Positions 33,702 through 47,428 of a DNA stretch of 64,000 bases are shown here, piece after piece. Numbering within the stretch: position 1 is the stretch's first letter; each line of letters begins with the position of its first letter. The notes beneath the pieces are model-generated. The model saw nothing but the letters and a program-made list of their open reading frames with translations. It searched no databases and was not told the DNA's origin. Both the position numbers and the translations under genes were made by a program. The stretch is from Aurantibacter aestuarii. Its GTDB lineage: Bacteria > Bacteroidota > Bacteroidia > Flavobacteriales > Flavobacteriaceae. Location: NCBI RefSeq assembly GCF_003008425.1, contig NZ_PXOQ01000009.1, positions 751,501-815,500 of the forward strand, given 5' to 3'.

Positions 33702-36700
33702 ATGATGAGATTGACCTACTTTATAGTTTTTACATTATTACTCCTTGCCACTAATATTACTGCACAGCAACAAGCTTCCAATTGGTATTTTGGTAACAAT
33801 GCGGGAATTAATTTTGATGCAAATAATAATATTACAAATTTGAATAATGGACAACTCTCTACTATTGAGGGCTGCACATCAATATCAAATGAAAGCGGAC
33901 AGCTTTTAATGTATACAGACGGAAAAACTGTTTATAATGCTGCACATACAGTAATGCAAAATGGTAATGGATTAAAAGGGGATCAATCTAGTTCTCAGTC
34001 TGCAATTATTGTACCTAAACCAGGAGATCCAAATATATACTATATATTCACTGTAGGGTCTAATCAAGGGGTTTTAGGCCTTAACTACTCTACTGTAGAT
34101 ATGACAGGTGATAATGGACTTGGTGTCGTTATCCAAAAAAACTTTAATTTAATACAAGCTTGTGCTGAAAAAGTTTCTGCTGTTCTACAGGATTGCAATA
34201 CTGGAAATATATGGGTCTCTGCGTTTTCAAGTGTCAGCGGAACAAATGTAAGTCAAATGAACACCTTTCATTCTTTTGAAATTTCAAATACAGGAGTGAA
34301 CCCACTAGCAGTTAAAAGTGTATTTACTAATATAAATATAAGTGAATTACGTGGAAATTTAAAATTCTCACCTGATGGAACCAAAGCAGCAAGTGCAAAC
34401 ATAGGATCGGGATTATTACTTCTAGACTTTGATGTTAATACAGGACAATTTAGCAATTTAGAAATTCTTTCTTTTACTTCTAGTTATAATAAACCTTATG
34501 GTGTAGAATTTTCTCCAAATAATAGATTTCTTTATGTGGCTGCCTCAAATGATTTTTTTAGTTCAAGCCCATCCGATAACAACAATGCAGCGAACCATTT
34601 ATCTTCGTTGACTCAATTCGATGTTAATGCTGCTAATGTTTCAAATAGTCAAGTTGTATTAGATGAAAGAAATCTTTATAGAAGTAGTCTACAATTAGGT
34701 CCAGACGGAAAAATCTATAGATCTATGAGCAGTTCTTATGATACAGGCTTACCTTCATTAAGTGTTATAAATAATCCAAATGAATTGGGTTTCGCTTCAA
34801 ATTATTTGCACGCTGCCATACCACTAAATAATTTATCAAGACAGGGTTTACCGCCATTTATAGCTTCTTTCTTTAAAGAAAGTATAGACATTACTCCTAA
34901 CAATATGACCTCTGACATTAATCTTCCTTTATGTACTGGAGATTCTTATACTTTAGAGGCAGAAGTAGTACCTAATGGTGTTTATGAGTGGTATCAAAAT
35001 GACATACTACTTCCAACACCAACACCACAAAATGAATTAACAGTAACTGAAGCAGGCACCTATAAGGTTATAATTGGTAACACAAATGGGGACTGTAATG
35101 TTTTAGAAGGTCAGGCTATTGTAACTTATTATGATATACCAATTGCCTCAACTCCAAACCCTTACTTTATTTGTGATGATAATGACGATGATTTAGCTAA
35201 TTTTGATTTAACTGTTCAAGATTCATTCATTTTAAATGGTCAAGATCCAAACATTTATCAAGTATTATATTTTACAAATCAAGTAAATGCCAATAACAAC
35301 ACTAATCCTATAATAGGCACGTATCAAAATACAAGTGTACCTCAAACTATATATGCTAGAGTTCAAAATATAGGAAACCCAGATTGCTTTGCGTTAACAC
35401 AATTTCAAATTGGGGTTTACGATACTCCAGAAATAGTTTCATTAGCTAATTTTGAAGCTTGTGATGATACTTCTGACGGAGATGATGCTAATGGACAAAC
35501 TACAATAAACCTATCTGCATTTAATGCTTCCATTTTAGGATCACAAAACGCTTCAGAATTTACTATTACCTATCACATAGATGAAAATGGAGCCATTAAC
35601 GATTCTGGAAATTTGGGTAACTCTTATTACAACACAACACCATTTAATCAGACATTATATGTTAGAATTGAAAACAATTTAAATGAAGACTGTTATGAAA
35701 CCGCTTCTTTTCAAGTTACTATTAATCCAGTACCTACAGCAAATAATGTTACTTTAAAACAGTGTGACGAAGATGGCGTTTCAGATGGAATTACTCAATT
35801 TAATTTAAATGAGGCTTTTGATGAAATTACAAATAGTAGTACTACCAGCACAATTATTTTTTATGACACTTTAAATAATGCAAATGCTGAAACTTCGCCA
35901 ATCTCTGCAGAAAACTACACCAATACCTTACCAAATGAAACTGTTTACGCAGTTGTGACAAATGACTCTACTGGTTGTAAAAAAATAGCTGAAATTAATT
36001 TAGAAATTAGCAACACTCAAATTAGTGATTATACTGCTCCAGAAGTTTGTGATGAATTGGGTTCTGAAGACGGTATGAATACGTTTGATTTAAATAGTTT
36101 TACAAGTATAATTTTAAATGGTTTACCAGGTGGTATTACTTTAAATTATTATGAGACTTTAGATGATGCTGTTTTAGAAAACAATCCATTACCATTAAGT
36201 TATACCAATACAACTCCATACAATCAAATTATTTATGCGAGAGCAGAAAGTGGTAATGACTGTTTTGGTATTAATGAAATAACTTTAACAGTTAATCCTA
36301 GACCACAATTAGATGATGATGAGCTAATTTATTATTGTTTAAATGAATTTCCTATTACACAAACATTAGACAGTGGTTTAATTGGAGACCCTAATAATTT
36401 TGATTTTAGTTGGACTACCGGAGAAACAACACCTTCTATAGAAGTAAACCAAGTTGGGGTATATACCGTTACGGTTATTAACCCTAATACAGGTTGCCAA
36501 AAATCCAAGACAATAACAATAGAAGCATCAGATATTGCAGTAATTACTCAACCTATTTATGTAAATGATGGTAATAGTTTAAATAATGTTGTTGACGTTA
36601 GTGTAACTGGTAGCGGTACTTACGAGTATGGCTTATTAAATCAAAATGGAGATTTTTACGGATACCAGGAAACAGGTTTATTTTATTATATCCCTGCTGG

Positions 36701-37031
36701 AATCTATACCGTTATGGTTAAGGATATCAAGAATAATTGTGGAATTGCAGAGCAAACTATATCTGTAATTGGTTTTCCTAATTTCTTTACACCAAATAAC
36801 GATGGATTTAACGACTTTTGGCAAGTTAATGGTGTAAACGAAATTTTTCAGGCAGATGCAGAAATTTATATTTTTGATCGCTACGGAAAATTATTAACCC
36901 GAATTAATCCTACTGGTCCAGGTTGGGATGGCACTTATAACGGAATACCTATGCCTACTAACGACTATTGGTTTATGGTAACTTTAGAAGATGGAAGAGT
37001 TTATAAAAATAATTTCACTTTAAAAAGATAA
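33702..37031 (+). CDS. T9SS type B secreted protein with beta-propeller and 4 Cys/Asp repeats
   Basis: 1109 residues. Signal peptide ending NITAQQ; then a WD40-like propeller region (about 22-400) with NWYFGNNAGINF and KFSPDGTKAASA. After an Ig-like stretch come four tandem repeats of about 85-95 residues from about residue 487, each beginning with Cys-Asp in a D/N/G-rich loop followed by a FDL/INL-type strand and carrying a second Cys near its end. A further Ig-like segment precedes the gliding motility-associated C-terminal domain (about 1026-1109: FFTPNNDGFNDFW, FDRYGKLL, GWDGTYNG, FTLKR). It should be secreted and surface-linked by the type IX system. First of four consecutive related genes. 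Confidence 0.88.
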   Translation: MMRLTYFIVFTLLLLATNITAQQQASNWYFGNNAGINFDANNNITNLNNGQLSTIEGCTSISNESGQLLMYTDGKTVYNAAHTVMQNGNGLKGDQSSSQSAIIVPKPGDPNIYYIFTVGSNQGVLGLNYSTVDMTGDNGLGVVIQKNFNLIQACAEKVSAVLQDCNTGNIWVSAFSSVSGTNVSQMNTFHSFEISNTGVNPLAVKSVFTNINISELRGNLKFSPDGTKAASANIGSGLLLLDFDVNTGQFSNLEILSFTSSYNKPYGVEFSPNNRFLYVAASNDFFSSSPSDNNNAANHLSSLTQFDVNAANVSNSQVVLDERNLYRSSLQLGPDGKIYRSMSSSYDTGLPSLSVINNPNELGFASNYLHAAIPLNNLSRQGLPPFIASFFKESIDITPNNMTSDINLPLCTGDSYTLEAEVVPNGVYEWYQNDILLPTPTPQNELTVTEAGTYKVIIGNTNGDCNVLEGQAIVTYYDIPIASTPNPYFICDDNDDDLANFDLTVQDSFILNGQDPNIYQVLYFTNQVNANNNTNPIIGTYQNTSVPQTIYARVQNIGNPDCFALTQFQIGVYDTPEIVSLANFEACDDTSDGDDANGQTTINLSAFNASILGSQNASEFTITYHIDENGAINDSGNLGNSYYNTTPFNQTLYVRIENNLNEDCYETASFQVTINPVPTANNVTLKQCDEDGVSDGITQFNLNEAFDEITNSSTTSTIIFYDTLNNANAETSPISAENYTNTLPNETVYAVVTNDSTGCKKIAEINLEISNTQISDYTAPEVCDELGSEDGMNTFDLNSFTSIILNGLPGGITLNYYETLDDAVLENNPLPLSYTNTTPYNQIIYARAESGNDCFGINEITLTVNPRPQLDDDELIYYCLNEFPITQTLDSGLIGDPNNFDFSWTTGETTPSIEVNQVGVYTVTVINPNTGCQKSKTITIEASDIAVITQPIYVNDGNSLNNVVDVSVTGSGTYEYGLLNQNGDFYGYQETGLFYYIPAGIYTVMVKDIKNNCGIAEQTISVIGFPNFFTPNNDGFNDFWQVNGVNEIFQADAEIYIFDRYGKLLTRINPTGPGWDGTYNGIPMPTNDYWFMVTLEDGRVYKNNFTLKR

Positions 37032-37063
37032 AGCATTATATTTAAGCATCTTATATCTTTAAA

Positions 37064-38896
37064 ATGCTTAAAAAATTATTTTTTCTATTTTTTTTATATT
37101 CAGGAGTTTTTTTCGCACAAGAAATTACGAGCTTCCAACAATATAACGGGCGTTACGACTATACAGCTATAGGAAACACTTTAAACCCTGCAGAAAATAA
37201 TTTAGATGGAAGTTTTTGTCAGTTGTTAAGCTCATCTTCAGCCGACTTAAATTTAGATCCCGCAAACGAAATAATTGCTGCTTATTTATTTTGGGCAGGT
37301 TCTGGAATGGGAGATGAAACCATTACATTAAACAATCAAGATTTCACTTCCGAACAAACTTTTAATGTGTTCTATAACGAATCTCCAACTTCATCTCTAC
37401 CCTATTTTTCTTGTGTTGCAGATATTACGTCCTTTGTACTTTCTGAAGGTAACACCAATTATACACTTTCAAATTTAGATGTCTCTAATGTGTTGACACC
37501 TAACACCACTTATTGTGGAAACCGAACTAATTTTGCTGGCTGGAGTATTTATATTATTTATAGAAACGATAATTTACCACTAAACCAAGTAAATCTTTTT
37601 GTGGGTTTAGATATTATTAATCGATTTGTTCCAGAAAAAGAAATCATTATAGATAATTTAAATGTGTTAGATAACCAAGATGCAAAAATTGGATTTTTAG
37701 CTTGGGAAGGTGACAATGCATTAAATTTTGGAGAAAGCCTTCTAATTAACGATAATATCTTATCTAATCCTCCATTAAATAATTCAGATAATGCATTTAA
37801 TGGCACAAATACCTTTAGCAATAGTAATACCTTATTTAATATGGATTTAGATGTGTATGATATAGAAAACAACATAAATGTTGGAGATACACAAGCTACA
37901 ATAAAGCTAACCACTGGTGGATTTGACAGTAATGGTTTCTATAGAGCAGATTTAATTATTTTAAATAATATTATTACCGTTTTAAACAGTCAGGTTCCGG
38001 ATGCCTCAGTAGAAAATTTGAATGTTGATGTGGCTTGTAATACTAGAGAAGTTTCATTAATCTATGATATTACTAATTTTAATTCTACAGAAGCACTTCC
38101 TGCTCAAACAGCGATTGCCATTTATGCTAACAGTACATTAATTGGACAGTCTCAAACCTTTAATAGTATTAATATTGGAGATTTTGAAACACATCAGGAA
38201 ACTTATATAGTACCAGATCAAATTCCATTAGATTTTACTTTAACTATTGTTGTTGATGATGATGGTGCTGGAAATGGTAATGTTTTAGAAATACTGGAAA
38301 CTAATAATTCTGCTCAAGATAATGTAGTATTGTTTCCTGCACCAATGATTATTCCACTTAACCTCTTTGAAACATGTATAGAAACAACCAATGTCTATTA
38401 TTTTAATTTAGAAGACGCATTAACACCTACACTTCAAAACAGCTATCTATCTTTTTCTTATTTTGAATCCTTAGAAGATTTAAATCTACAGCAAAATGAA
38501 ATTTTAAATATTACCAATTACAGTAGTCAATTTTTCCCTGAAGTTATTTATGTTTTAGCAGAAAACACTTCTTGTTTTGATATTATTACTATAACCCTTC
38601 AAATAGATAACTGTCCTCCATTTGTTTCAACAGGAATTTCTCCAAACAATGATGGCTTAAATGATATATTGAATATTAATTTTTACAATAATAACAATCC
38701 AGTTTATGATTTATATATCTATAATCGTTATGGCACGCTTACTTTTATTGGATCTCAAAATCAACCTTGGGATGGAACTTCTAACCGTGGTATAAATAAA
38801 GGTAAAATTTTACCTGTTGGCACTTATTACTATGTGTTAAATGTAAATAACAGCCCTGAAAAGCAATTAACAGGATGGGTTTACCTTAATAGATAA
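37064..38896 (+). CDS. T9SS type B secreted protein with CARDB-like domain
   Basis: 610 residues; signal peptide ending GVFFAQ. The N-terminal 300 residues form a domain seen in several Bacteroidota surface proteins (ADLNLDPANEIIAAYLFWAG, GWSIYIIYRND, KIGFLAWEGDN, GGFDSNGFYRADLIILNN). A CARDB-like beta sandwich follows (VENLNVDVACNTREVSLIYD to about 425) and then one degenerate Cys repeat. The C-terminal sorting domain begins about residue 518 (GISPNNDGLNDIL, IYNRYGTL, WVYLNR). It lies 32 bases after the first gene of the cluster and is the least repetitive member. Confidence 0.86.
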   Translation: MLKKLFFLFFLYSGVFFAQEITSFQQYNGRYDYTAIGNTLNPAENNLDGSFCQLLSSSSADLNLDPANEIIAAYLFWAGSGMGDETITLNNQDFTSEQTFNVFYNESPTSSLPYFSCVADITSFVLSEGNTNYTLSNLDVSNVLTPNTTYCGNRTNFAGWSIYIIYRNDNLPLNQVNLFVGLDIINRFVPEKEIIIDNLNVLDNQDAKIGFLAWEGDNALNFGESLLINDNILSNPPLNNSDNAFNGTNTFSNSNTLFNMDLDVYDIENNINVGDTQATIKLTTGGFDSNGFYRADLIILNNIITVLNSQVPDASVENLNVDVACNTREVSLIYDITNFNSTEALPAQTAIAIYANSTLIGQSQTFNSINIGDFETHQETYIVPDQIPLDFTLTIVVDDDGAGNGNVLEILETNNSAQDNVVLFPAPMIIPLNLFETCIETTNVYYFNLEDALTPTLQNSYLSFSYFESLEDLNLQQNEILNITNYSSQFFPEVIYVLAENTSCFDIITITLQIDNCPPFVSTGISPNNDGLNDILNINFYNNNNPVYDLYIYNRYGTLTFIGSQNQPWDGTSNRGINKGKILPVGTYYYVLNVNNSPEKQLTGWVYLNR

Positions 38897-38945
38897 AGGT
38901 TGTTAACATAAAAAGCAATAAATTTGTACAGACATTAAAATATTT

Positions 38946-41900
38946 ATGAGTAAGTTTTTAAAACATATTAAATTTATAGTAATAACAATACTTTTTTTCT
39001 CGAGTAACTTTTCTATAGGACAACAAATCACTACAGATAGTTCAAATTCTCTTCAGGATTTAATACAGAATAATTTAGCTAGTGGCTGTGTAGAGATTAG
39101 TAATATCAGTTCTTCTGTAAATGGTTCTGTAAATAATTTAGATAGCTTTGGCTTGTTTAATCGCGCTAATTCCAATTTTCCTTTTGAAAGTGGTATTATA
39201 TTAACTACGGGAGATGTTAATGAAGCCGGAAACACAACAATTACCTCTGCTCTAAATTCTGGAAGTGCCTCTTGGGGAAATGATCCCGACTTAAATACTG
39301 CATTAGGAAGCTCTGAGACTTTTATAAATGCAACGTCTATTCAATTTGATTTTATTTCTGGAACTGATTTAGTTGAGTTTAATTATATTTTAGCATCCGA
39401 AGAATATTTTGGCAATAATCCTTGCGAATATTCTGATGGATTTGCTTTTTTAATAAAAGAAACCGGTACAACTAATCCATTCGTAAATATCGCTTTAATT
39501 CCGGGAACAACCACACCTGTAAATACCACAACCATTCATAATGAAATACTTCCCAGCGGAAACGATGCAGGTTGTGCTGCTGTTAATGAGCAATATTTTG
39601 AAGGTTTTAATATTGGAGACACCAATTATAATGGCAGAACGACCGTATTAACAGCATCTGCTGCAGTTACAGCAAACGTTACCTATACTATTAAACTTAT
39701 TATTGCCGATGCTCGAGACCAGTTTTTTGATTCTGCGGTATTTATCCAAGCCAATAGTTTTGATAATACAGTGGACTTAGGTCCTGATATTTTTACCTGT
39801 AATGACGCCGCTTCTTTAGATGGGACTGTATTAAACTCAAACGCAAGTTACACCTGGACATTAAATGGTACGGCATTACCATCATTAAACGATATGCCTA
39901 TAGTTTCAGTTAATCAGTCAGGAACCTACGAAATTACTGTCTCTATACCTTTAAATGGTAGCACTTGTACTTTTTCGGATTCTGTTGTTGTAAATTTAAA
40001 TAATATTGAAACTGGCCCTATTTTATCGGATTTAGCATTATGTGATGACCCTACTAACGATGGGCTTGAAGTTTTTGATTTTTCTTCTGCTGAAACGCAG
40101 ATGACTTCAAATTTACCACAACCTGAAACATATACCATAAGCTATCATTCTACAAACGCTGATGCCATTTCTGGAAATTCACCTATTCCAAATCCAAATA
40201 ATTACACTAATAACACAAGTCCAGAACTTATATTTATTAGAGCTGTAAATAGTCAAGGCTGTATATATGTATCTACCTTTAACTTAATAGTAAATGAATT
40301 TCCTATAATTACAGACCCAACAGATCCATTTACAATTTGCGCCAATGATGGAGGTGCTTTTTTACCAGTTTTAGATGATGCTATTACTGGCATGAATCCT
40401 AATTTTTTGGTAACTTATCATAATACACCTGGAGACGCTCAATCGGGAAATAATCCATTAACCTTTCCTTACACACCTGCTTCAACCCCAGAAATTGTTT
40501 ATATTAGAGTAACTACAAGTGCAGGATGTTTCGATACGGGAGATGTAGAGCTTATTGAAAATGACAACCCTGTTATTAATACCGAAGTACAACAAATTGA
40601 TGCTTGTATGTTTGAAGCAGATTTTGCAGCATTCGATATTACAAGTGTTGAGGCTGATATTTTAGGTGGATTAACAGGCGTTACAGTAACCTATCATGAA
40701 AATTTACCAGATGCCAATACAGGCAATAATCCAATTCCAGACCCAACTAATTACACCAATATAATTCCTGAAGAACAACTCGTTTATATTAGAGTCGTAG
40801 ACGATGCATCTGGTTGCGCAACCATTCATCCTATAGAATTACATACCTTTTTACTTTATACAGGTACAGACTTTATAATTACACCTGCTAGTCCTGTGGA
40901 ATATGGTGAGTGTGATAATGATTTTGACGGTATGGTAGAATTTGATTTAACAACTATTGCAGGATTTATTTTAAATGATGTCGATGATACTACAGTATTG
41001 TTTTATGAAAATGACCCTGTAACTAATCCTTCTGAACCAGAAATTGACCAAACAGTACCTTATATTATTAATGGTGACACCACAATATTTGTAAGACTAG
41101 ATCGTGTAGGTCCTACTTGTTCTTATAATAATAATATTACACTTATCATTTTTGATGGTGTTGCAGTAAACCCTTTAACAGCTCAAGATTATTGTGATAA
41201 TGATGACGACTTATCTGAAGTCCCTGTCAATTTCACGGATTTCGAACCCTATTTAGATTCGGAAGTTACATCTTCTGGGACTTTTAATTATACTTTTTTT
41301 CCAACACTACAAGACGCGGAAGACGACACTAACCAATATGGAACTTCTCAAGTTATTTTCCCAGTTAGCAATCCACAAAGCTTTTTTGTTACAGTTACAA
41401 ACCAACTTACAGGATGTATTGCTATAGAAGAGTTATTAATTAATTTTCTACCAGCACCAAGCTTAAATCCTGCAAATATTATTTATAGATGTAATGCAGA
41501 TGGTACCAGCGATGCTGTGATAGATTTAGAAACCGTAATCCCTGAAATAAATAATGGTGCTGGATTAAATTTCACATTTTACACAAATAATCTAGATGCA
41601 GAAAGTGCAACAAATGCTATAACCACACCAACAGCATATAACACAAGCTCAACCACTTTATTTGCTCGTGTTGAAAACGCAAGTACAGGTTGTTTTGATG
41701 TCCAATCTTTTGAAATTATAGTAAACCCTAAACCTGTAGTTCCAACTATTGAAGACTATGTTGTTTGTTTAAATCCTGGGGACACTCAAGGTGAATTCTT
41801 TTTTGAAATGGAAAAAGATGCCGAAATTTTAGGAGCTCAAACCGGCATTCAAGTCTTTTACTTTTCTTCTCAGTCGGGTGCAGACAATTATGATCCTGCC

Positions 41901-43883
41901 AATGGAATGACTGCCGATTTAATTGATAAAACAATAGCTTATCAGACTTCAAACGCAGTAGAAACAATATTTGTTCGAGTTGAAAACATAAACGATCCTA
42001 GCTGTGCAACCGTTGGAGATTTTGAAATTAATATTGGTCAAATCCCTATTTATAACACCGCTTTTGGAAATTTTGGCACTTGTGATGATGCTTCGAATGA
42101 CGGCATTGCCACTTTTGATTTATCTAACTTTTCAACTGTACTTCAACAAGGATCTTCTCAAAACTTAACTATTACTTATTATTTTACTGAGCAAGACGCT
42201 ATTGACACAGTCAACCCTATACCGGACATTACAAATTTCACCAATACACAAAATCCACAAACCTTATATTTTAATATAGATAACGGTACTATATGTGATG
42301 GAGTAGATAATTTTGAAATTCTTGTAAACCCGATACCTTCTGGAGTTACTCCTGCTCCATTAACAGTTTGCGACACTAATACTGATGGAATAGCTCAATT
42401 TGACTTAACAGCTGTTGAAGATGAAGTACTTTCTGATTTAGGTGTAAGACAAGATGATATTGAAGTAAACTATTTCCCTTCTCAAACAGATTTTGATAAT
42501 AATACCAATCAAATTCCTACTGCAAATGTGACTAATTATACTAATATCTCTAACCCGCAAACGGTTATCATTCAAATTCTAAATACATCAACAACATGCT
42601 TCGACACTGTAGAACTGGTTTTAAATGTAGAAGTGCCTCCAACGTTAGAAACTAACTTAAATTTTGAAACTTGCGACAATACTGCGTCTACTTTCGATTT
42701 TAACGACATCACAGAAGCTTTAATAAATACTCAAACGAATGTTGTGTTAGAGTTTTATGCTTCCCAAAATGATGCGACCACTCAAAATAATCCATTAAGT
42801 AATCCATTTACCTATAGCGCTACAAATACTACTTTGTTCGTTAGGGCTAATTTCTCTGGTAGTGATTGCTTTAATATAACTAGTTTTAATCTACAAGTCA
42901 ACCCAAGACCTTCAGTGGGAATCGTAAACAACTTAGTGACTTGTGATACGGATTATGATTTTATGGAACCATTTGACTTAAGTATTCAAACTCCTGCTAT
43001 ACTTGGCGCACAAAACCCTGCCAACTTCAGCGTTAATTATTTTAACTCGCAACAAGATGCAGATGATAACACCAATGCTATAACAGATTTAAATGTTGTT
43101 TCAGAGCATAACCAAGTGTATTTTATTAGAATTGAAAATAATACAACAGGTTGTTATAATACGACCACTTTTAGTACTATTGTAAACAGAAAACCTGTAG
43201 TAGAACTTGATGACAAACCGCTTTGTTTAGATAATTTACCATTAGTTATAAATGCCGACACTGGCTTTTCTACAGATACTTATTTATGGTCTACAAACGA
43301 AACGACAGCTCAAATAGAAATTAACTCTATTGGCTCCTATACATTAACTGTTACAACTGCTCAAGGTTGTTCTACAACAGATTCGTTTGATGTTATAGAG
43401 TCTGAAGCCGCAACTATAGAGTTTACTCAAACCGTAGATTTTGCAGACCCTAATTCTATAACTATTGAAGTTTCTGGAATTGGCGATTATTTATATCAAT
43501 TAGATGGTGGATTACCACAAACTTCCAATGTATTTAATGATGTGTCCCATGGAGCTCACATTATTACAGTTATAGATCAATTAGGGTGTAATTCGGTTAC
43601 AAAAGAAGTCATTGTAATAGATGCTCCACTATTTTTTACACCAAATGGAGACGGTTATAATGATACTTGGCATATTACTGGAGTTGAACAATTAAATGGT
43701 ACCATAGTTTATATTTTTGACCGCTATGGTAAGTTATTAAAAACTTTATTACATAATTCTCCTGGTTGGAACGGTTTTTATAATGGCTATTTAATGCCTG
43801 GAAGTGACTACTGGTTTTTAGCTTTAGTAAAAAAGGATGGAATTGAATTTGAAGTAAAAGGTCATTTTGCTTTAAAGCATTAA
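38946..43883 (+). CDS. T9SS type B secreted giant protein with choice-of-anchor L domain and 11 repeats
   Basis: 1645 residues. A signal peptide ends NFSIGQQ. The choice-of-anchor L domain spans about 27-275 (FNYILASEEYFG, GFAFLIKE, ALIPGTTTPVN). An Ig-like stretch leads to eleven tandem repeats from about 365 to 1418, each with an initial Cys-Asp/Asn/Gly loop, a conserved aromatic-Tyr strand (for example ITYYFTEQDA) and a second Cys. Another Ig-like domain precedes the sorting domain from about 1561 (FFTPNGDGYNDTWHI, FDRYGKLLKTL). GWDG of the sorting domain is GWNG here. It should be exported by T9SS. The gene is the third of the cluster. Confidence 0.88.
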   Translation: MSKFLKHIKFIVITILFFSSNFSIGQQITTDSSNSLQDLIQNNLASGCVEISNISSSVNGSVNNLDSFGLFNRANSNFPFESGIILTTGDVNEAGNTTITSALNSGSASWGNDPDLNTALGSSETFINATSIQFDFISGTDLVEFNYILASEEYFGNNPCEYSDGFAFLIKETGTTNPFVNIALIPGTTTPVNTTTIHNEILPSGNDAGCAAVNEQYFEGFNIGDTNYNGRTTVLTASAAVTANVTYTIKLIIADARDQFFDSAVFIQANSFDNTVDLGPDIFTCNDAASLDGTVLNSNASYTWTLNGTALPSLNDMPIVSVNQSGTYEITVSIPLNGSTCTFSDSVVVNLNNIETGPILSDLALCDDPTNDGLEVFDFSSAETQMTSNLPQPETYTISYHSTNADAISGNSPIPNPNNYTNNTSPELIFIRAVNSQGCIYVSTFNLIVNEFPIITDPTDPFTICANDGGAFLPVLDDAITGMNPNFLVTYHNTPGDAQSGNNPLTFPYTPASTPEIVYIRVTTSAGCFDTGDVELIENDNPVINTEVQQIDACMFEADFAAFDITSVEADILGGLTGVTVTYHENLPDANTGNNPIPDPTNYTNIIPEEQLVYIRVVDDASGCATIHPIELHTFLLYTGTDFIITPASPVEYGECDNDFDGMVEFDLTTIAGFILNDVDDTTVLFYENDPVTNPSEPEIDQTVPYIINGDTTIFVRLDRVGPTCSYNNNITLIIFDGVAVNPLTAQDYCDNDDDLSEVPVNFTDFEPYLDSEVTSSGTFNYTFFPTLQDAEDDTNQYGTSQVIFPVSNPQSFFVTVTNQLTGCIAIEELLINFLPAPSLNPANIIYRCNADGTSDAVIDLETVIPEINNGAGLNFTFYTNNLDAESATNAITTPTAYNTSSTTLFARVENASTGCFDVQSFEIIVNPKPVVPTIEDYVVCLNPGDTQGEFFFEMEKDAEILGAQTGIQVFYFSSQSGADNYDPANGMTADLIDKTIAYQTSNAVETIFVRVENINDPSCATVGDFEINIGQIPIYNTAFGNFGTCDDASNDGIATFDLSNFSTVLQQGSSQNLTITYYFTEQDAIDTVNPIPDITNFTNTQNPQTLYFNIDNGTICDGVDNFEILVNPIPSGVTPAPLTVCDTNTDGIAQFDLTAVEDEVLSDLGVRQDDIEVNYFPSQTDFDNNTNQIPTANVTNYTNISNPQTVIIQILNTSTTCFDTVELVLNVEVPPTLETNLNFETCDNTASTFDFNDITEALINTQTNVVLEFYASQNDATTQNNPLSNPFTYSATNTTLFVRANFSGSDCFNITSFNLQVNPRPSVGIVNNLVTCDTDYDFMEPFDLSIQTPAILGAQNPANFSVNYFNSQQDADDNTNAITDLNVVSEHNQVYFIRIENNTTGCYNTTTFSTIVNRKPVVELDDKPLCLDNLPLVINADTGFSTDTYLWSTNETTAQIEINSIGSYTLTVTTAQGCSTTDSFDVIESEAATIEFTQTVDFADPNSITIEVSGIGDYLYQLDGGLPQTSNVFNDVSHGAHIITVIDQLGCNSVTKEVIVIDAPLFFTPNGDGYNDTWHITGVEQLNGTIVYIFDRYGKLLKTLLHNSPGWNGFYNGYLMPGSDYWFLALVKKDGIEFEVKGHFALKH

Positions 43884-43925
43884 GTTTTTAACGTTTTATT
43901 TTAGAATTAACATTCGGTAGTTGGT

Positions 43926-43933
43926 TACCTTTG
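43926..43933 (+). promoter_or_regulatory. Candidate -7 box for the fourth T9SS type B gene
   Basis: TACCTTTG matches TAnnTTTG, 17 bases upstream of the ATG at 43951; it supports that ATG over an earlier in-frame codon at 43921, which would lie before the transcript start. Confidence 0.5.
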
Positions 43934-43950
43934 CACTCCAATTACGAAAA

Positions 43951-46281
43951 ATGAAGCAGATTACTAAAATTCTATTTTTAATGCTACCATTTTGTGTCTT
44001 ATCGCAAAATGTGTTAACCGACTCGCAAGCGTTTACACCTCAGCAACTTATAGAAGACATTCTTATAGACAGTAATTGTATAGAAAATGTGGTAGTTACA
44101 AATGCTGTAAGCGGCGATTTTGGAGACTCAGAACGTAGTTATGGTTATTTTGATGCAACAGGAACCAGTTTTCCTTTTCAGAGTGGTATAGTTTTAAGCA
44201 CAGGACGATTATCTAACGTTCAAGGTCCAAACGACAATTTAAGTGACGACGATGGAAATAATTGGACTGGAGATACCGATTTAGAAATTGCTTTACAGGA
44301 AACCAACACTTTAAATGCCACAATATTAGAGTTTGACTTCACTTCTATTGCTAACGAAATTAGCTTTCGTTATATTTTTGCTTCAGAAGAGTACCAAGAA
44401 AATAATCCAAACACGTGTAATTTCTCAGATTTATTTGGTTTTTTAATTCGTCCAATAGGTTCTACAACTTATCAAAACATAGCTCTTGTACCAGGCACTA
44501 ATACGCCCGTAAAAGTTACTACAGTACACCCGGAAATTCCTAATGGATGTTCTGCTATAAATGAAGCTTTTTTTGACACTTTTAACAACAGTTCTGCTCC
44601 TATAAATTTTAATGGACAGACAAAAATTTTAACTGCTACTGCAACAACTATCCCAAATCAAACCTACCATGTTAAGCTCGTTATTGCAGACGAACAAAAT
44701 TTTAGATTTGATTCTGCTGTATTTTTAGAAGCTGGAAGTTTTAAATTAAGCTCTAATTTAGGTCCTGATAGATTATTAGAAAATAGAACAGCATTATGCG
44801 GTACAGAAACATTACAATTAGATGCTTTTCAAACCAATGCTGTAGCCTACCAATGGTTTAAAAATGGGGTTCCAATTACTGGTGCTATAAATAGCACCTA
44901 CACTGTGGTAGATAATGGAATTTATAGCGTAGAGGTCACTTTAAACAATACCTGTATTTCTGAAGGTGAAATTGTTGTAGAGTACGCAAATTTACCAACA
45001 GTAAATAATATTAATGTCTTTGAATGTGATGCCAATCAAGATGGAATCACAACTTACAATTTATACAGTTATGAAAGTGATATTATAACAGATCAAGCTG
45101 ATAGTATAATTAACTTCTATTTAAATCCAACAGATGCCGAAAATGGTATTGATGAAATTACGAACCCTAATACTTATACTAATACTAGTGCAAATCAGAC
45201 TATTTACGCTTTAGTTACAAGCCAACTTACAAACTGTAGTACTATTGCATCAATTACTTTAGGCACTTCAAATAACAGTTTAAATATTTCAGATGTTTCA
45301 GTTTGTGAAGATGATGTTATAGATGGTTTTACCACTTTCGATTTAAACACGATTACCACAGACATACAATCACAAATTCCTCCAAATGCTACCGTGCGGT
45401 TTTTTGCAACAGAAACAGATGCATTAAATGGAACTAATCAACTTAATGTTAATTTCACGAATACTACCGCAAATTTTCAAACCATTTTTGTAAAGGTAAA
45501 TGATACTTCTAACAACTGTTTTGCGATTTCTCCTGCAAATTTAATGGTGCTAGAACGCCCAGAAGTAGAAGCAGATTATACCACATCCTATTGTGAGACC
45601 AATTTTCCGGACTCTATAACACTAACAGGAGAGGTTATTAACCCACAATCTAATTATAGTTATCAATGGTTTTTAAATAGCACTTTATTAAATGAAACCA
45701 GCACAACGCTAAATGCAAATATGGCTGGTATTTACACTTTTGAAGTTACAAACAGCAATCAATGTATAGCAACCCAAACTATTACCGTTAATCCAATAAA
45801 TGCACCTATAATAAGTTCTGTTGATTTCACAGAGTTAACTGAAAATAATACGGTAACCATTAATCTGGAAAATAATGGAGATTTTGAATTTGCATTAGAC
45901 AATCCCAATTTGTTATATCAAAACTCAAATGTATTTACAAATGTGTCTCCTGGCATTCATATAGCTTATGTAAGAGAAAAGAATGGCTGCGGTTTTGCAC
46001 AACAAACTATCTATATATTAGGATTCCCACAGTTTTTTACACCTAATGGAGATGGTTTTAATGATTTCTGGAAACCTCTTGGAATTTCTAAAAATTCTAA
46101 TATCGATTTAGATATTAAAATTTTTGATCGTTATGGTAAATTATTAAAGCAAGTTGCCCCTTTTGGTTCAGGTTGGGACGGCACGTTTAATGCAAACCCA
46201 ATGCCTACAAATGATTATTGGTATATAATTACCAGAACAAACGGCACTACATATACAGGACATTTTACATTAAAGCGCTAA
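43951..46281 (+). CDS. T9SS type B secreted protein with choice-of-anchor L domain and 2 repeats
   Basis: 776 residues from the ATG at 43951 (MKQITKILFLMLPFCVLSQ, a clear signal peptide). The choice-of-anchor L domain (about 20-265; FRYIFASEEYQE, LFGFLIRPIG, ALVPGTNTPV) is related to that of the preceding gene. One Ig-like domain, two Cys/Asp repeats from about residue 356 and another Ig-like segment follow. The sorting domain begins near 690 (FFTPNGDGFNDFW, FDRYGKLL, GWDGTFNANPMPTNDYW, FTLKR). It looks like a compact paralogue of the eleven-repeat protein. Confidence 0.88.
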   Translation: MKQITKILFLMLPFCVLSQNVLTDSQAFTPQQLIEDILIDSNCIENVVVTNAVSGDFGDSERSYGYFDATGTSFPFQSGIVLSTGRLSNVQGPNDNLSDDDGNNWTGDTDLEIALQETNTLNATILEFDFTSIANEISFRYIFASEEYQENNPNTCNFSDLFGFLIRPIGSTTYQNIALVPGTNTPVKVTTVHPEIPNGCSAINEAFFDTFNNSSAPINFNGQTKILTATATTIPNQTYHVKLVIADEQNFRFDSAVFLEAGSFKLSSNLGPDRLLENRTALCGTETLQLDAFQTNAVAYQWFKNGVPITGAINSTYTVVDNGIYSVEVTLNNTCISEGEIVVEYANLPTVNNINVFECDANQDGITTYNLYSYESDIITDQADSIINFYLNPTDAENGIDEITNPNTYTNTSANQTIYALVTSQLTNCSTIASITLGTSNNSLNISDVSVCEDDVIDGFTTFDLNTITTDIQSQIPPNATVRFFATETDALNGTNQLNVNFTNTTANFQTIFVKVNDTSNNCFAISPANLMVLERPEVEADYTTSYCETNFPDSITLTGEVINPQSNYSYQWFLNSTLLNETSTTLNANMAGIYTFEVTNSNQCIATQTITVNPINAPIISSVDFTELTENNTVTINLENNGDFEFALDNPNLLYQNSNVFTNVSPGIHIAYVREKNGCGFAQQTIYILGFPQFFTPNGDGFNDFWKPLGISKNSNIDLDIKIFDRYGKLLKQVAPFGSGWDGTFNANPMPTNDYWYIITRTNGTTYTGHFTLKR

Positions 46282-46432: not shown

Positions 46433-47428
46433 ATGAAATATTTAAATTACTTTTTTGCCTTTCTATTTTTAATGACGAGTTGTTCAAGTGATGATGATGC
46501 AGTTACTGTTGTCAACAATACTCCAGAACCTTCAAATCAAACTCTTACAGGAACTATTAGCAGTTCCAATCAATTTTCAATTTTAAATAATGCTTTAGAA
46601 CTAACAGATTTAAAAACAGTTTTAGATGCTAATATATTTACCGTTTTGGCTCCAAATAATACAGCATTTGAAGCCTTTTTAACGGCAAACTCTTACAATA
46701 GCATAAATGATGTTCCCGTAGGTTTATTAGAAAATATTCTTTTAAATCATGTAATTAATAATCAAGTATTAAGATCTGAAATAGAATTTAACGAATCTGG
46801 TTACATTAAATCAAATGCAAATGGACCATTAAATGAAAAATTAGATATTTATTATAATATTAATTTAGCTAACAGCATTAATGGTCTTGCAAATTTTGCA
46901 AGTGATGAGATTGTTACAGAAACTGGTGTTATTCATGAAATAGATGCACTATTAACTTTACCTACTGTATATGACATGTTAACTGCAAATCCTGAGTTTA
47001 ATGTATTGATTCAAACCATGACAAATGATGCTCCAAATACAGATTTCGAAGAAATATTAAACCGATTATTAGATAATAATTTAGACGGCTTAAATCCAGA
47101 TTTCACCTTATTTGCTCCAAATAACTCAGCATTAAATGCAGTTGATACTTCAACTTTTAATGAAAGTCAAATCACTAATATTTTATTACACCATGTAGTT
47201 AAAGATGATAATATTGTATATACTGAAATTACAGCAAACGGTTCGCTAACTAAACCAACTTTACAAGGAGAAGATATTACCATTTTTACCTCTACTTCTA
47301 CAGGCATAGATGCAACTATTACAGATGGTGCTGGAAATACTGATATTACCATTATAAATAAAGGAATTCAAACTATAAATGGAATTATATATATTTCTGA
47401 GAAAGTTTTAATACCGGCACAATTCTAA
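46433..47428 (+). CDS. Fasciclin (FAS1) domain lipoprotein
   Basis: 331 residues. MKYLNYFFAFLFLMTSCSSDDD is a lipoprotein signal with the Cys followed by a Ser/Asp tract, as expected for Bacteroidota surface lipoproteins. Two FAS1 domains follow: about 40-180 (FTVLAPNNTAFEAFL, LLNHVI, GVIHEIDALL) and about 180-331 (FTLFAPNNSALNA, LLHHVVKDD, GIIYISEKVLIP). FAS1 proteins mediate adhesion or bind glycans. It is monocistronic with a terminator 20 bases downstream and a TATATTTA box near 46412. Confidence 0.92.
   Translation: MKYLNYFFAFLFLMTSCSSDDDAVTVVNNTPEPSNQTLTGTISSSNQFSILNNALELTDLKTVLDANIFTVLAPNNTAFEAFLTANSYNSINDVPVGLLENILLNHVINNQVLRSEIEFNESGYIKSNANGPLNEKLDIYYNINLANSINGLANFASDEIVTETGVIHEIDALLTLPTVYDMLTANPEFNVLIQTMTNDAPNTDFEEILNRLLDNNLDGLNPDFTLFAPNNSALNAVDTSTFNESQITNILLHHVVKDDNIVYTEITANGSLTKPTLQGEDITIFTSTSTGIDATITDGAGNTDITIINKGIQTINGIIYISEKVLIPAQF

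What the first reader, a model, noticed from the sequence alone, without database searches (positions are those of the whole stretch)
33702..46281. Four adjacent T9SS type B proteins carry 4, 1, 11 and 2 copies of one Cys/Asp-rich repeat
Each repeat of about 85-95 residues begins with Cys-Asp in a D/N/G-rich loop (as in CDDASNDGIATFDL, CDTNTDGIAQFDL), has a middle aromatic strand before a D-A pair, and ends with a second Cys near a short beta strand. The loop recalls DxNxDG calcium sites and the two Cys could form a disulphide outside the cell. Repeat number differs widely between neighbours, as expected for unequal crossing over and growth of a stalk. I do not recognise a named domain for it.
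Basis: partly seen in the sequence, partly recalled or inferred. Interest (0 to 1): 0.6.

Follow-up and report, generated by a model that had tools for sequence, protein, structure and literature searches.

The report
Surface stalk proteins, fixed repeat numbers
Four neighbouring genes of a flavobacterium-like bacterium encode cell-surface stalk proteins built from an uncatalogued two-cysteine repeat, and the repeat numbers 4, 1, 11 and 2 turn out to be kept in related genera instead of drifting, so the stalk lengths probably matter to the cell.

Summary
In detail: four adjacent type B T9SS proteins carry exactly 4, 1, 11 and 2 copies of one repeat, both Cys present in 18 of 18. No Pfam or NCBIfam family covers it, and no convincing PDB sequence match was found. 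AlphaFold2 gives separate, confident units (pLDDT 95); the nearest solved structures are tandem Ig-like domains, including the T9SS-secreted grappling-hook protein GhpA.

The evolutionary reading fails. Among orthologues picked by score and length, A has 4 units in 18 of 18, D 2 in 18 of 18, C 11 in 19 of 20, B 1 in 17 of 20. Each C unit's nearest relative is the same position in another genome (198 of 198). Calcium is open: the strict loop motif is in 3 of 18 units.

Best explanation: surface-anchored proteins, probably adhesins, of fixed reach, with disulphide-clamped Ig-like stalk units. No porP/sprF gene is linked; the CTDs of A, C and D resemble those beside one unlinked PorP/SprF subclass, so a shared shuttle is predicted. 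Adhesion, disulphide and shuttle use are inferred.

The parts
33702..37031 (+). A: type B T9SS protein, 4 units (1109 aa)
35157..36317 (+). A units 1-4 (35157-35441, 35445-35744, 35748-36029, 36033-36317)
36768..37028 (+). A type B C-terminal sorting domain
   Evidence: TIGR04131, 114 bits
37064..38896 (+). B: type B T9SS protein, 1 unit (610 aa)
38360..38602 (+). B unit 1
38636..38893 (+). B sorting domain, of the other CTD group (48 bits)
38946..43883 (+). C: type B T9SS protein, 11 units (1645 aa)
39063..39761 (+). C N-terminal choice-of-anchor L domain (presumed tip)
   Evidence: NF038133, 153 bits
40026..43205 (+). C units 1-11 (40026-40319, 40323-40586, 40590-40892, 40896-41174, 41178-41471, 41475-41747, 41751-42062, 42066-42350, 42354-42653, 42657-42923, 42927-43205)
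   Evidence: units 8-9 modelled
43617..43877 (+). C sorting domain
   Evidence: 103 bits
43921..46281 (+). D: type B T9SS protein, 2 units (786 aa as called from TTG)
44092..44742 (+). D N-terminal choice-of-anchor L domain (presumed tip)
   Evidence: NF038133, 163 bits; model
45010..45573 (+). D units 1-2 (45010-45285, 45289-45573)
46021..46278 (+). D sorting domain
   Evidence: 110 bits
31856..33642 (+). ABC transporter-like ATPase and membrane protein directly upstream; neighbour kept in 15 of 21 loci with a C orthologue, the other six being cut off inside the cluster

Best explanation
A conserved locus for four cell-surface proteins of fixed reach, probably adhesins. Shown by calculation: each has a type B T9SS sorting domain; C and D carry an N-terminal choice-of-anchor L domain; between the ends lies a stalk of tandem units predicted as Ig-like domains; the number of units per protein is kept across genera and each position keeps its own identity. 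Inferred: the proteins leave through SprA, are collected by a PorP/SprF barrel and stay on the outer membrane; the stalk lifts the N-terminal domain off the surface. The two Cys of each unit probably form a disulphide. Cys1 lies in the first strand and Cys2 at the start of the last, so about 71 of about 95 residues lie inside the covalent loop, and a pull along the chain would bypass them. That would make the stalk hard to unfold, as isopeptide bonds do in Gram-positive adhesin stalks. A, C and D, which have no linked porP/sprF gene, are predicted to share one unlinked PorP/SprF shuttle; B, whose sorting domain is of another group, is predicted to use another.
For: Sorting domains and SprA in the genome. 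Fixed counts: A 4 in 18 of 18, D 2 in 18 of 18, C 11 in 19 of 20, B 1 in 17 of 20. Same-position identity 53% against 28% within a protein; 198 of 198 C units nearest to the same position, 323 of 334 for all four proteins together. In C the tip (69%) and sorting domain (69%) are kept better than the units (43-57%), as in a tip-stalk-anchor design. Model of units C8-C9 pLDDT 95.2, pTM 0.84, same elements in both units; nearest solved structures are GhpA fragments and Ig tandems. Cys pair. The distance from Cys2 to the next Cys1 is 25 with SD 1.1 (485 junctions, 97% at 23-27), while Cys1-Cys2 is 71 with SD 3.6 (619 units): the link along the chain is what is kept constant. Shuttle: ten type B domains but three PorP/SprF genes in the genome; A, C, D are 41-59% identical in CTD to each other and to three large paralogues, B only 23-34% to these but 43-48% to two others; six sampled PorP/SprF genes of other genomes are 51-81% identical to the C3 one and 20-24% to the other two, and five of the six lie beside a CTD that is 48-60% identical to A, C and D but 29-36% to B. 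Published: orphan type B substrates share one orphan shuttle in F. johnsoniae (PMC12618676, passages); type B proteins are held by PorP-like proteins (PMC9143113, passages).
Against: No structure coordinates were available, so the Cys-Cys distance was not measured. Coupling analysis is ambiguous: the Cys pair ranks 9 of 4005 but its columns hardly vary, and the pair 4-86 (rank 27) places strand A by the far half of the last strand, which does not favour a clamp at its start. VIA-align Z is at most 6.9, below the level of 8 under which only a common arrangement may be shared. The choice-of-anchor L model has no Foldseek match at E <= 0.001. Adhesion is not shown for any of the four. In F. johnsoniae the CTD of one orphan substrate gave mostly static foci, with helical movement in 3% of cells.
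Confidence: 0.6

Rival explanations
1. Expandable repeat stalks: the numbers differ because unequal crossing over keeps adding and losing units.
For: Tandem units in head-to-tail order. One C orthologue has 14 units and Kordia B has 2. Shorter A-like genes with 1, 2, 4 or 6 units occur beside A in several loci. Large paralogues in the same genome share 2.9 kb of repeat DNA at 99.9-100% identity.
Against: Counts are kept in orthologues; units within C are 28% identical and no C unit out of 198 is nearest to another position.
Confidence: 0.07
2. The arrays are rows of different ligand-binding domains (multivalent adhesin or glycan binder), not a mere stalk: every position keeps its own sequence because each binds something.
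For: Position-specific conservation; Ig-like units also match Ig-like domains of a Bacteroides glucan-binding surface protein (6e57, Z 6.0, rmsd 2.9 over 79).
Against: Units are the least conserved folded part of C, 43-57% against 69% for tip and CTD; the most conserved columns are the Cys, the Asp loop and core residues.
Confidence: 0.2
3. The four proteins assemble with each other into one surface complex or fibre; fixed counts reflect lateral contacts at set heights.
For: Gene order and close spacing (32, 49 and 37 bases between the ORFs), joint conservation of A, B, C and D; T9SS-secreted GhpA forms a heptamer (PMC11205867, passage).
Against: B lies in none of L035, L041 and L042, where C is kept; in L047 the order is A, D, C, B. 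No interaction data.
Confidence: 0.13

Closest known systems
T9SS type B substrates (TIGR04131), such as SprB of Flavobacterium johnsoniae
   Same: C-terminal type B sorting domain; large repetitive surface protein; SprA in the genome. [quoted passage not shown]
   Different: No porP/sprF gene beside them; fixed unit numbers; nothing here shows a part in gliding.
[quoted passage not shown]
   Same: Several type B genes without a linked shuttle and, as predicted here, one unlinked PorP/SprF for several.
   Different: Their sequences could not be compared; whether they contain this repeat is unknown here.
Grappling hook protein GhpA of Aureispira (PDB 9fls, 9flp, 9flx and others)
   Same: Best Foldseek match of the two-unit model (E 1.3e-5, TM 0.44, 14% identity); a T9SS-secreted surface protein of a gliding predator (PMC11205867, passage).
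   Different: No sequence match from either profile; VIA-align Z 6.6 is tied with animal Ig tandems.
Cross-linked Ig-like stalks of Gram-positive adhesins and pili (Mobiluncus adhesin, Spy0128)
   Same: Chain of Ig-like domains, each with an internal covalent link; isopeptide bonds there join first and last strands and are thought to protect against tension (PMC10619420, passages).
   Different: Here the presumed link is a disulphide and is not shown; other secretion and anchoring system.

Membership tests
T9SS type B substrate | C-terminal TIGR04131 domain over the curated cut-off | tested here: met
   A 114, B 48, C 103, D 110 bits; cut-off 35
T9SS type B substrate | N-terminal Sec signal peptide | not tested
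   Hydrophobic N-termini seen by eye in the ORFs; no predictor was run
T9SS type B substrate | T9SS translocon in the genome | tested here: met
   SprA, 2713 bits
T9SS type B substrate | Secretion depends on a PorP/SprF shuttle | not testable with these tools
   Three PorP/SprF genes exist in the genome, none in the window's contig
SprB-SprF type pair | porP/sprF gene directly downstream | tested here: not met
   None in the window's contig; none in the 21 loci with a C orthologue, as far as these reach
Choice-of-anchor L (NF038133) | Match over the curated cut-off of 27 bits | tested here: met
   C 153 and D 163 bits; A and B have no such hit
Ig-like families of Pfam (Ig_2, PKD and others) for the repeat unit | Profile match of the unit over the gathering score | tested here: not met
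   No hit over cut-off for six units alone nor over the units in the whole proteins; Ig_2 and PKD come close only outside the units
Ig-like fold (structural sense) | Fold match of a single unit to solved Ig-like domains | tested here: inconclusive
   Unit 2: Z 6.0-6.1, rmsd 2.9-3.3 over 79-83 residues; E 1e-5 for the pair; Z under 8
DxDxDG-type calcium loops | Contiguous D-x-[DN]-x-[DN]-G after Cys1 | tested here: not met
   3 of 18 window units; 27% of 577 distinct loops against 1.8% in shuffles: a minority have it, most do not
GhpA grappling hook proteins | Detectable sequence homology | tested here: not met
   Profile A1 gave two chance rows at E >= 5, profile A2 none at E <= 10

The most novel reading that the evidence does not exclude
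The locus encodes a set of surface rods of graded, genetically fixed heights (4, 1, 11 and 2 units, plus one flanking Ig-like domain on either side in A, C and D), kept at those heights across genera, made rigid by one disulphide per unit, and mostly delivered by a single unlinked PorP/SprF shuttle. Unit number acts as a ruler for the reach of different tips, in contrast to the large paralogues of the same genome, whose repeat DNA is nearly identical between copies.
Probability: 0.35. Interest if true: 0.65.

Novelty: new variant of a known kind. Interest (0 to 1): 0.45.

Why it matters
Tandem repeats in bacterial adhesins are usually taken to vary in number. Here a four-protein set keeps its numbers while the units have diverged to 25% identity, so length and position seem to be under selection. 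That makes a question testable: does T9SS surface architecture depend on defined reach? The unit is widespread in one family of Bacteroidota, absent from the domain libraries searched, and could be registered as a new domain. The linked prediction, that several type B proteins share an unlinked PorP/SprF shuttle, extends the F. johnsoniae orphan-shuttle result to other genera.

Tried and rejected
Unequal crossing over as the present process: rejected for C.

Named domain for the repeat: Pfam and NCBIfam scans of the four proteins and Pfam scans of six units plus two other stretches gave no hit over cut-off in the units. PADLOC and PHROGs were not searched. PDB sequence searches with profiles A1 and A2 gave two rows at E >= 5 (interferon gamma) and none.

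Calcium loop: weak in the window (3 of 18), but above shuffles in the wider set; left open, not rejected.

Residue coupling as a test of the disulphide: inconclusive, partly against the simple clamp geometry.

Fold of the choice-of-anchor L domain: jelly-roll-like matches only (VesC Z 8.5 rmsd 2.9 over 129; laminarinase Z 8.0; gingipain adhesin domain K2 Z 6.9, Foldseek E 2.5e-3), no match at E <= 0.001, so no ligand is claimed.

Literature: searches showed, in titles and abstract beginnings, no paper on this repeat or locus; 'type IX secretion' with 'choice-of-anchor L' gave 0 papers. Only open-licence PMC papers are held.

Rows dropped before counts: L047 (12 detections at the loose threshold); proteins under set bit scores and lengths, which leaves out the split C of L040 (4 + 7 units), the masked C of L037 (10 units found), shorter A-like genes with 1, 2, 4 or 6 units, and a D-like gene of L035 with 0 units (477 to 479 bits range; 479). 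The loci come from one scan with C as query, so they favour genomes with a C like the window's. In one search the CTD of the C12 gene was missed by my motif. In one search the PorP/SprF genes of L096-L099 were missed by my motif and were not compared.
Full report
Observation. The four ORFs at 33702-46281 are as described, and the repeat count of 4, 1, 11 and 2 is exact. Both Cys are the only invariant columns of the 18 units. Mean identity between units is 25%. Cys-Asp opens 12 of 18 units, and a strict DxNxDG/DxDxDG loop is in 3 of 18.

Families. All four proteins match TIGR04131 and Pfam CHU_C at the C-terminus; C and D match choice-of-anchor L (NF038133) at the N-terminus. The repeats match no Pfam or NCBIfam family over its cut-off, and no PDB chain convincingly by sequence. 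The N-terminal parts of A and B have no family hit over cut-off.

Distribution. The profile of the 18 units matches 23 of 40 relatives, own genome included: 20 of 25 genomes of the same family and 3 of 15 of other families of the order. Over the phylum sample it matches 40 of 296 genomes: 28 of the same family (own included), 6 of one other family of the order, 6 of other families of the class.

Fixed numbers. In the unnamed relatives C has full-length matches of steady length, for example 1654, 1624, 1615, 1634, 1643, 1622, 1653 and 1628 aa open frames at 39-59% identity; one genome also has further copies of 2189, 1641 and 1634 aa. In loci fetched with C as query (57 loci, plus one) the unit numbers of orthologues chosen by score and length, window included, are: A 4 in 18 of 18; B 1 in 17 of 20, 2 in three Kordia; C 11 in 19 of 20, 14 in Algibacter; D 2 in 18 of 18. 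Left out by that choice are shorter A-like genes with other counts, a split C in Lacinutrix himadriensis (4 + 7 units), a masked C, and one D-like gene without units. The locus sits behind the same ABC transporter gene pair in 15 of the 21 loci with a C orthologue; the other six loci end inside the cluster. Order varies in places: L047 has A, D, C, B, and B was not found in L035, L041 and L042.

Position-specific descent. For 18 C proteins with 11 detections each (one of 19 was dropped for a twelfth), same-position units are 52.8% identical on average, units of one protein 28.0%; 198 of 198 have their nearest relative at the same position in another genome. With A, B, C and D together it is 323 of 334. 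So the arrays were complete before these genera parted, and have not been reshuffled since. In C the choice-of-anchor L domain (69%) and the sorting domain (69%) are kept better than the units (43-57%).

Structure. AlphaFold2 on units C8-C9 with 150 rows gives pLDDT 95.2 and pTM 0.84; each unit has a short first strand with Cys1, a helix, a strand, a short helix, and two long strands, Cys2 lying just before the last. Foldseek's best PDB match is a GhpA fragment (E 1.3e-5, TM 0.44), with Ig tandems close behind. VIA-align gives Z 6.9 for NCAM2 and 6.6 for GhpA, none at 8 or more, so only the general Ig-like arrangement is claimed. The choice-of-anchor L domain of D is modelled at pLDDT 83.6; its matches are jelly-roll-like and weak.

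Cysteines and spacing. Among 629 units detected in the loci and window, Cys1 is found for 619 (602 in the column, 17 nearby) and Cys2 for 629 (623 in the column, 6 nearby); of the ten without Cys1, eight are cut off or masked and two are internal. Of 488 units under 80% identity, 470 have no other Cys in match columns. The step from Cys2 to the next Cys1 has median 25 and SD 1.1 (485 junctions), the step within a unit median 71 and SD 3.6 (619 units). The flanking short Cys-Cys domains of A, C and D keep this step at 24-26. One window junction (C unit 3 to 4) is 32. I infer that the chain from Cys2 to the next Cys1 is the load path and that the loop inside each Cys pair is shielded. The coupling analysis neither proves this nor fits it neatly.

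Export and anchoring. The genome has SprA, ten type B sorting domains and three PorP/SprF genes. Two of the three lie directly behind type B genes (C12, C4). The third, at C3:1886-2770, lies about 1.5 kb behind the sorting domain of a large paralogue, with an opposite ORF between. A, C and D have CTDs like those of the three large paralogues; B resembles the C4 and C6:241587 genes. Six PorP/SprF genes sampled from other genomes are of the C3 kind (51-81% identity), and five of them lie beside a CTD of the A/C/D group; the sixth is at a contig start. None of the 21 loci with a C orthologue shows a PorP/SprF gene as far as it reaches. This matches the published F. johnsoniae case, where three orphan type B substrates share one orphan shuttle (PMC12618676, passages). 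There, one such CTD gave mostly static foci and helical movement in 3% of cells, so a gliding role cannot be assumed.

Contrast within the genome. Short contigs C14, C15 and C16 share 2.9 kb of repeat DNA at 99.9-100% identity, and C14 also shares 1.56 kb at 100% with the ends of C3 and C4. They encode large type B proteins with the same unit plus other repeats. These arrays are nearly identical between copies, unlike those of the finding. The assembly is a draft and its contigs end there, so their true number and order are not known.

Verdict. A real, uncatalogued Ig-like repeat in a conserved set of T9SS surface proteins. The adhesin role, the disulphide and the shared shuttle are inferences with stated tests.

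Noticed in passing
L019, L020, L021, L023, L024 (G000 contigs C14, C15, C16, end of C3, start of C4): Large type B T9SS paralogues share up to 2.9 kb of repeat-coding DNA at 99.9-100% identity while their upstream parts differ; the contigs break there. It could be gene conversion, recent duplication or exchange of N-terminal parts, or partly an assembly effect.
   Followed up: partly
L022:1784-2824 (G000:C3): A PorP/SprF gene of a subclass only 21-22% identical to the other two of the genome, found beside group A/C/D sorting domains in other genomes.
   Followed up: yes
L040:9923-14811 (Lacinutrix himadriensis): The C orthologue is split into two ORFs with 4 and 7 units: frameshift, sequencing error or true fission.
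   Followed up: no
L032:5539-7995, L036:5543-8002, L044:5515-7974 and others: An extra A-like gene of about 820 aa with 4 units between A and B, absent from the window.
   Followed up: no
L027:663-1368 (G000:C12): Near-identical direct DNA repeats (89-93%) in a type B gene rich in Asp/Gly, directly before a PorP/SprF gene: an array that looks recently amplified.
   Followed up: no
window 46433-47428: ORF resembling a fasciclin-domain lipoprotein (by eye) directly downstream of D.
   Followed up: no
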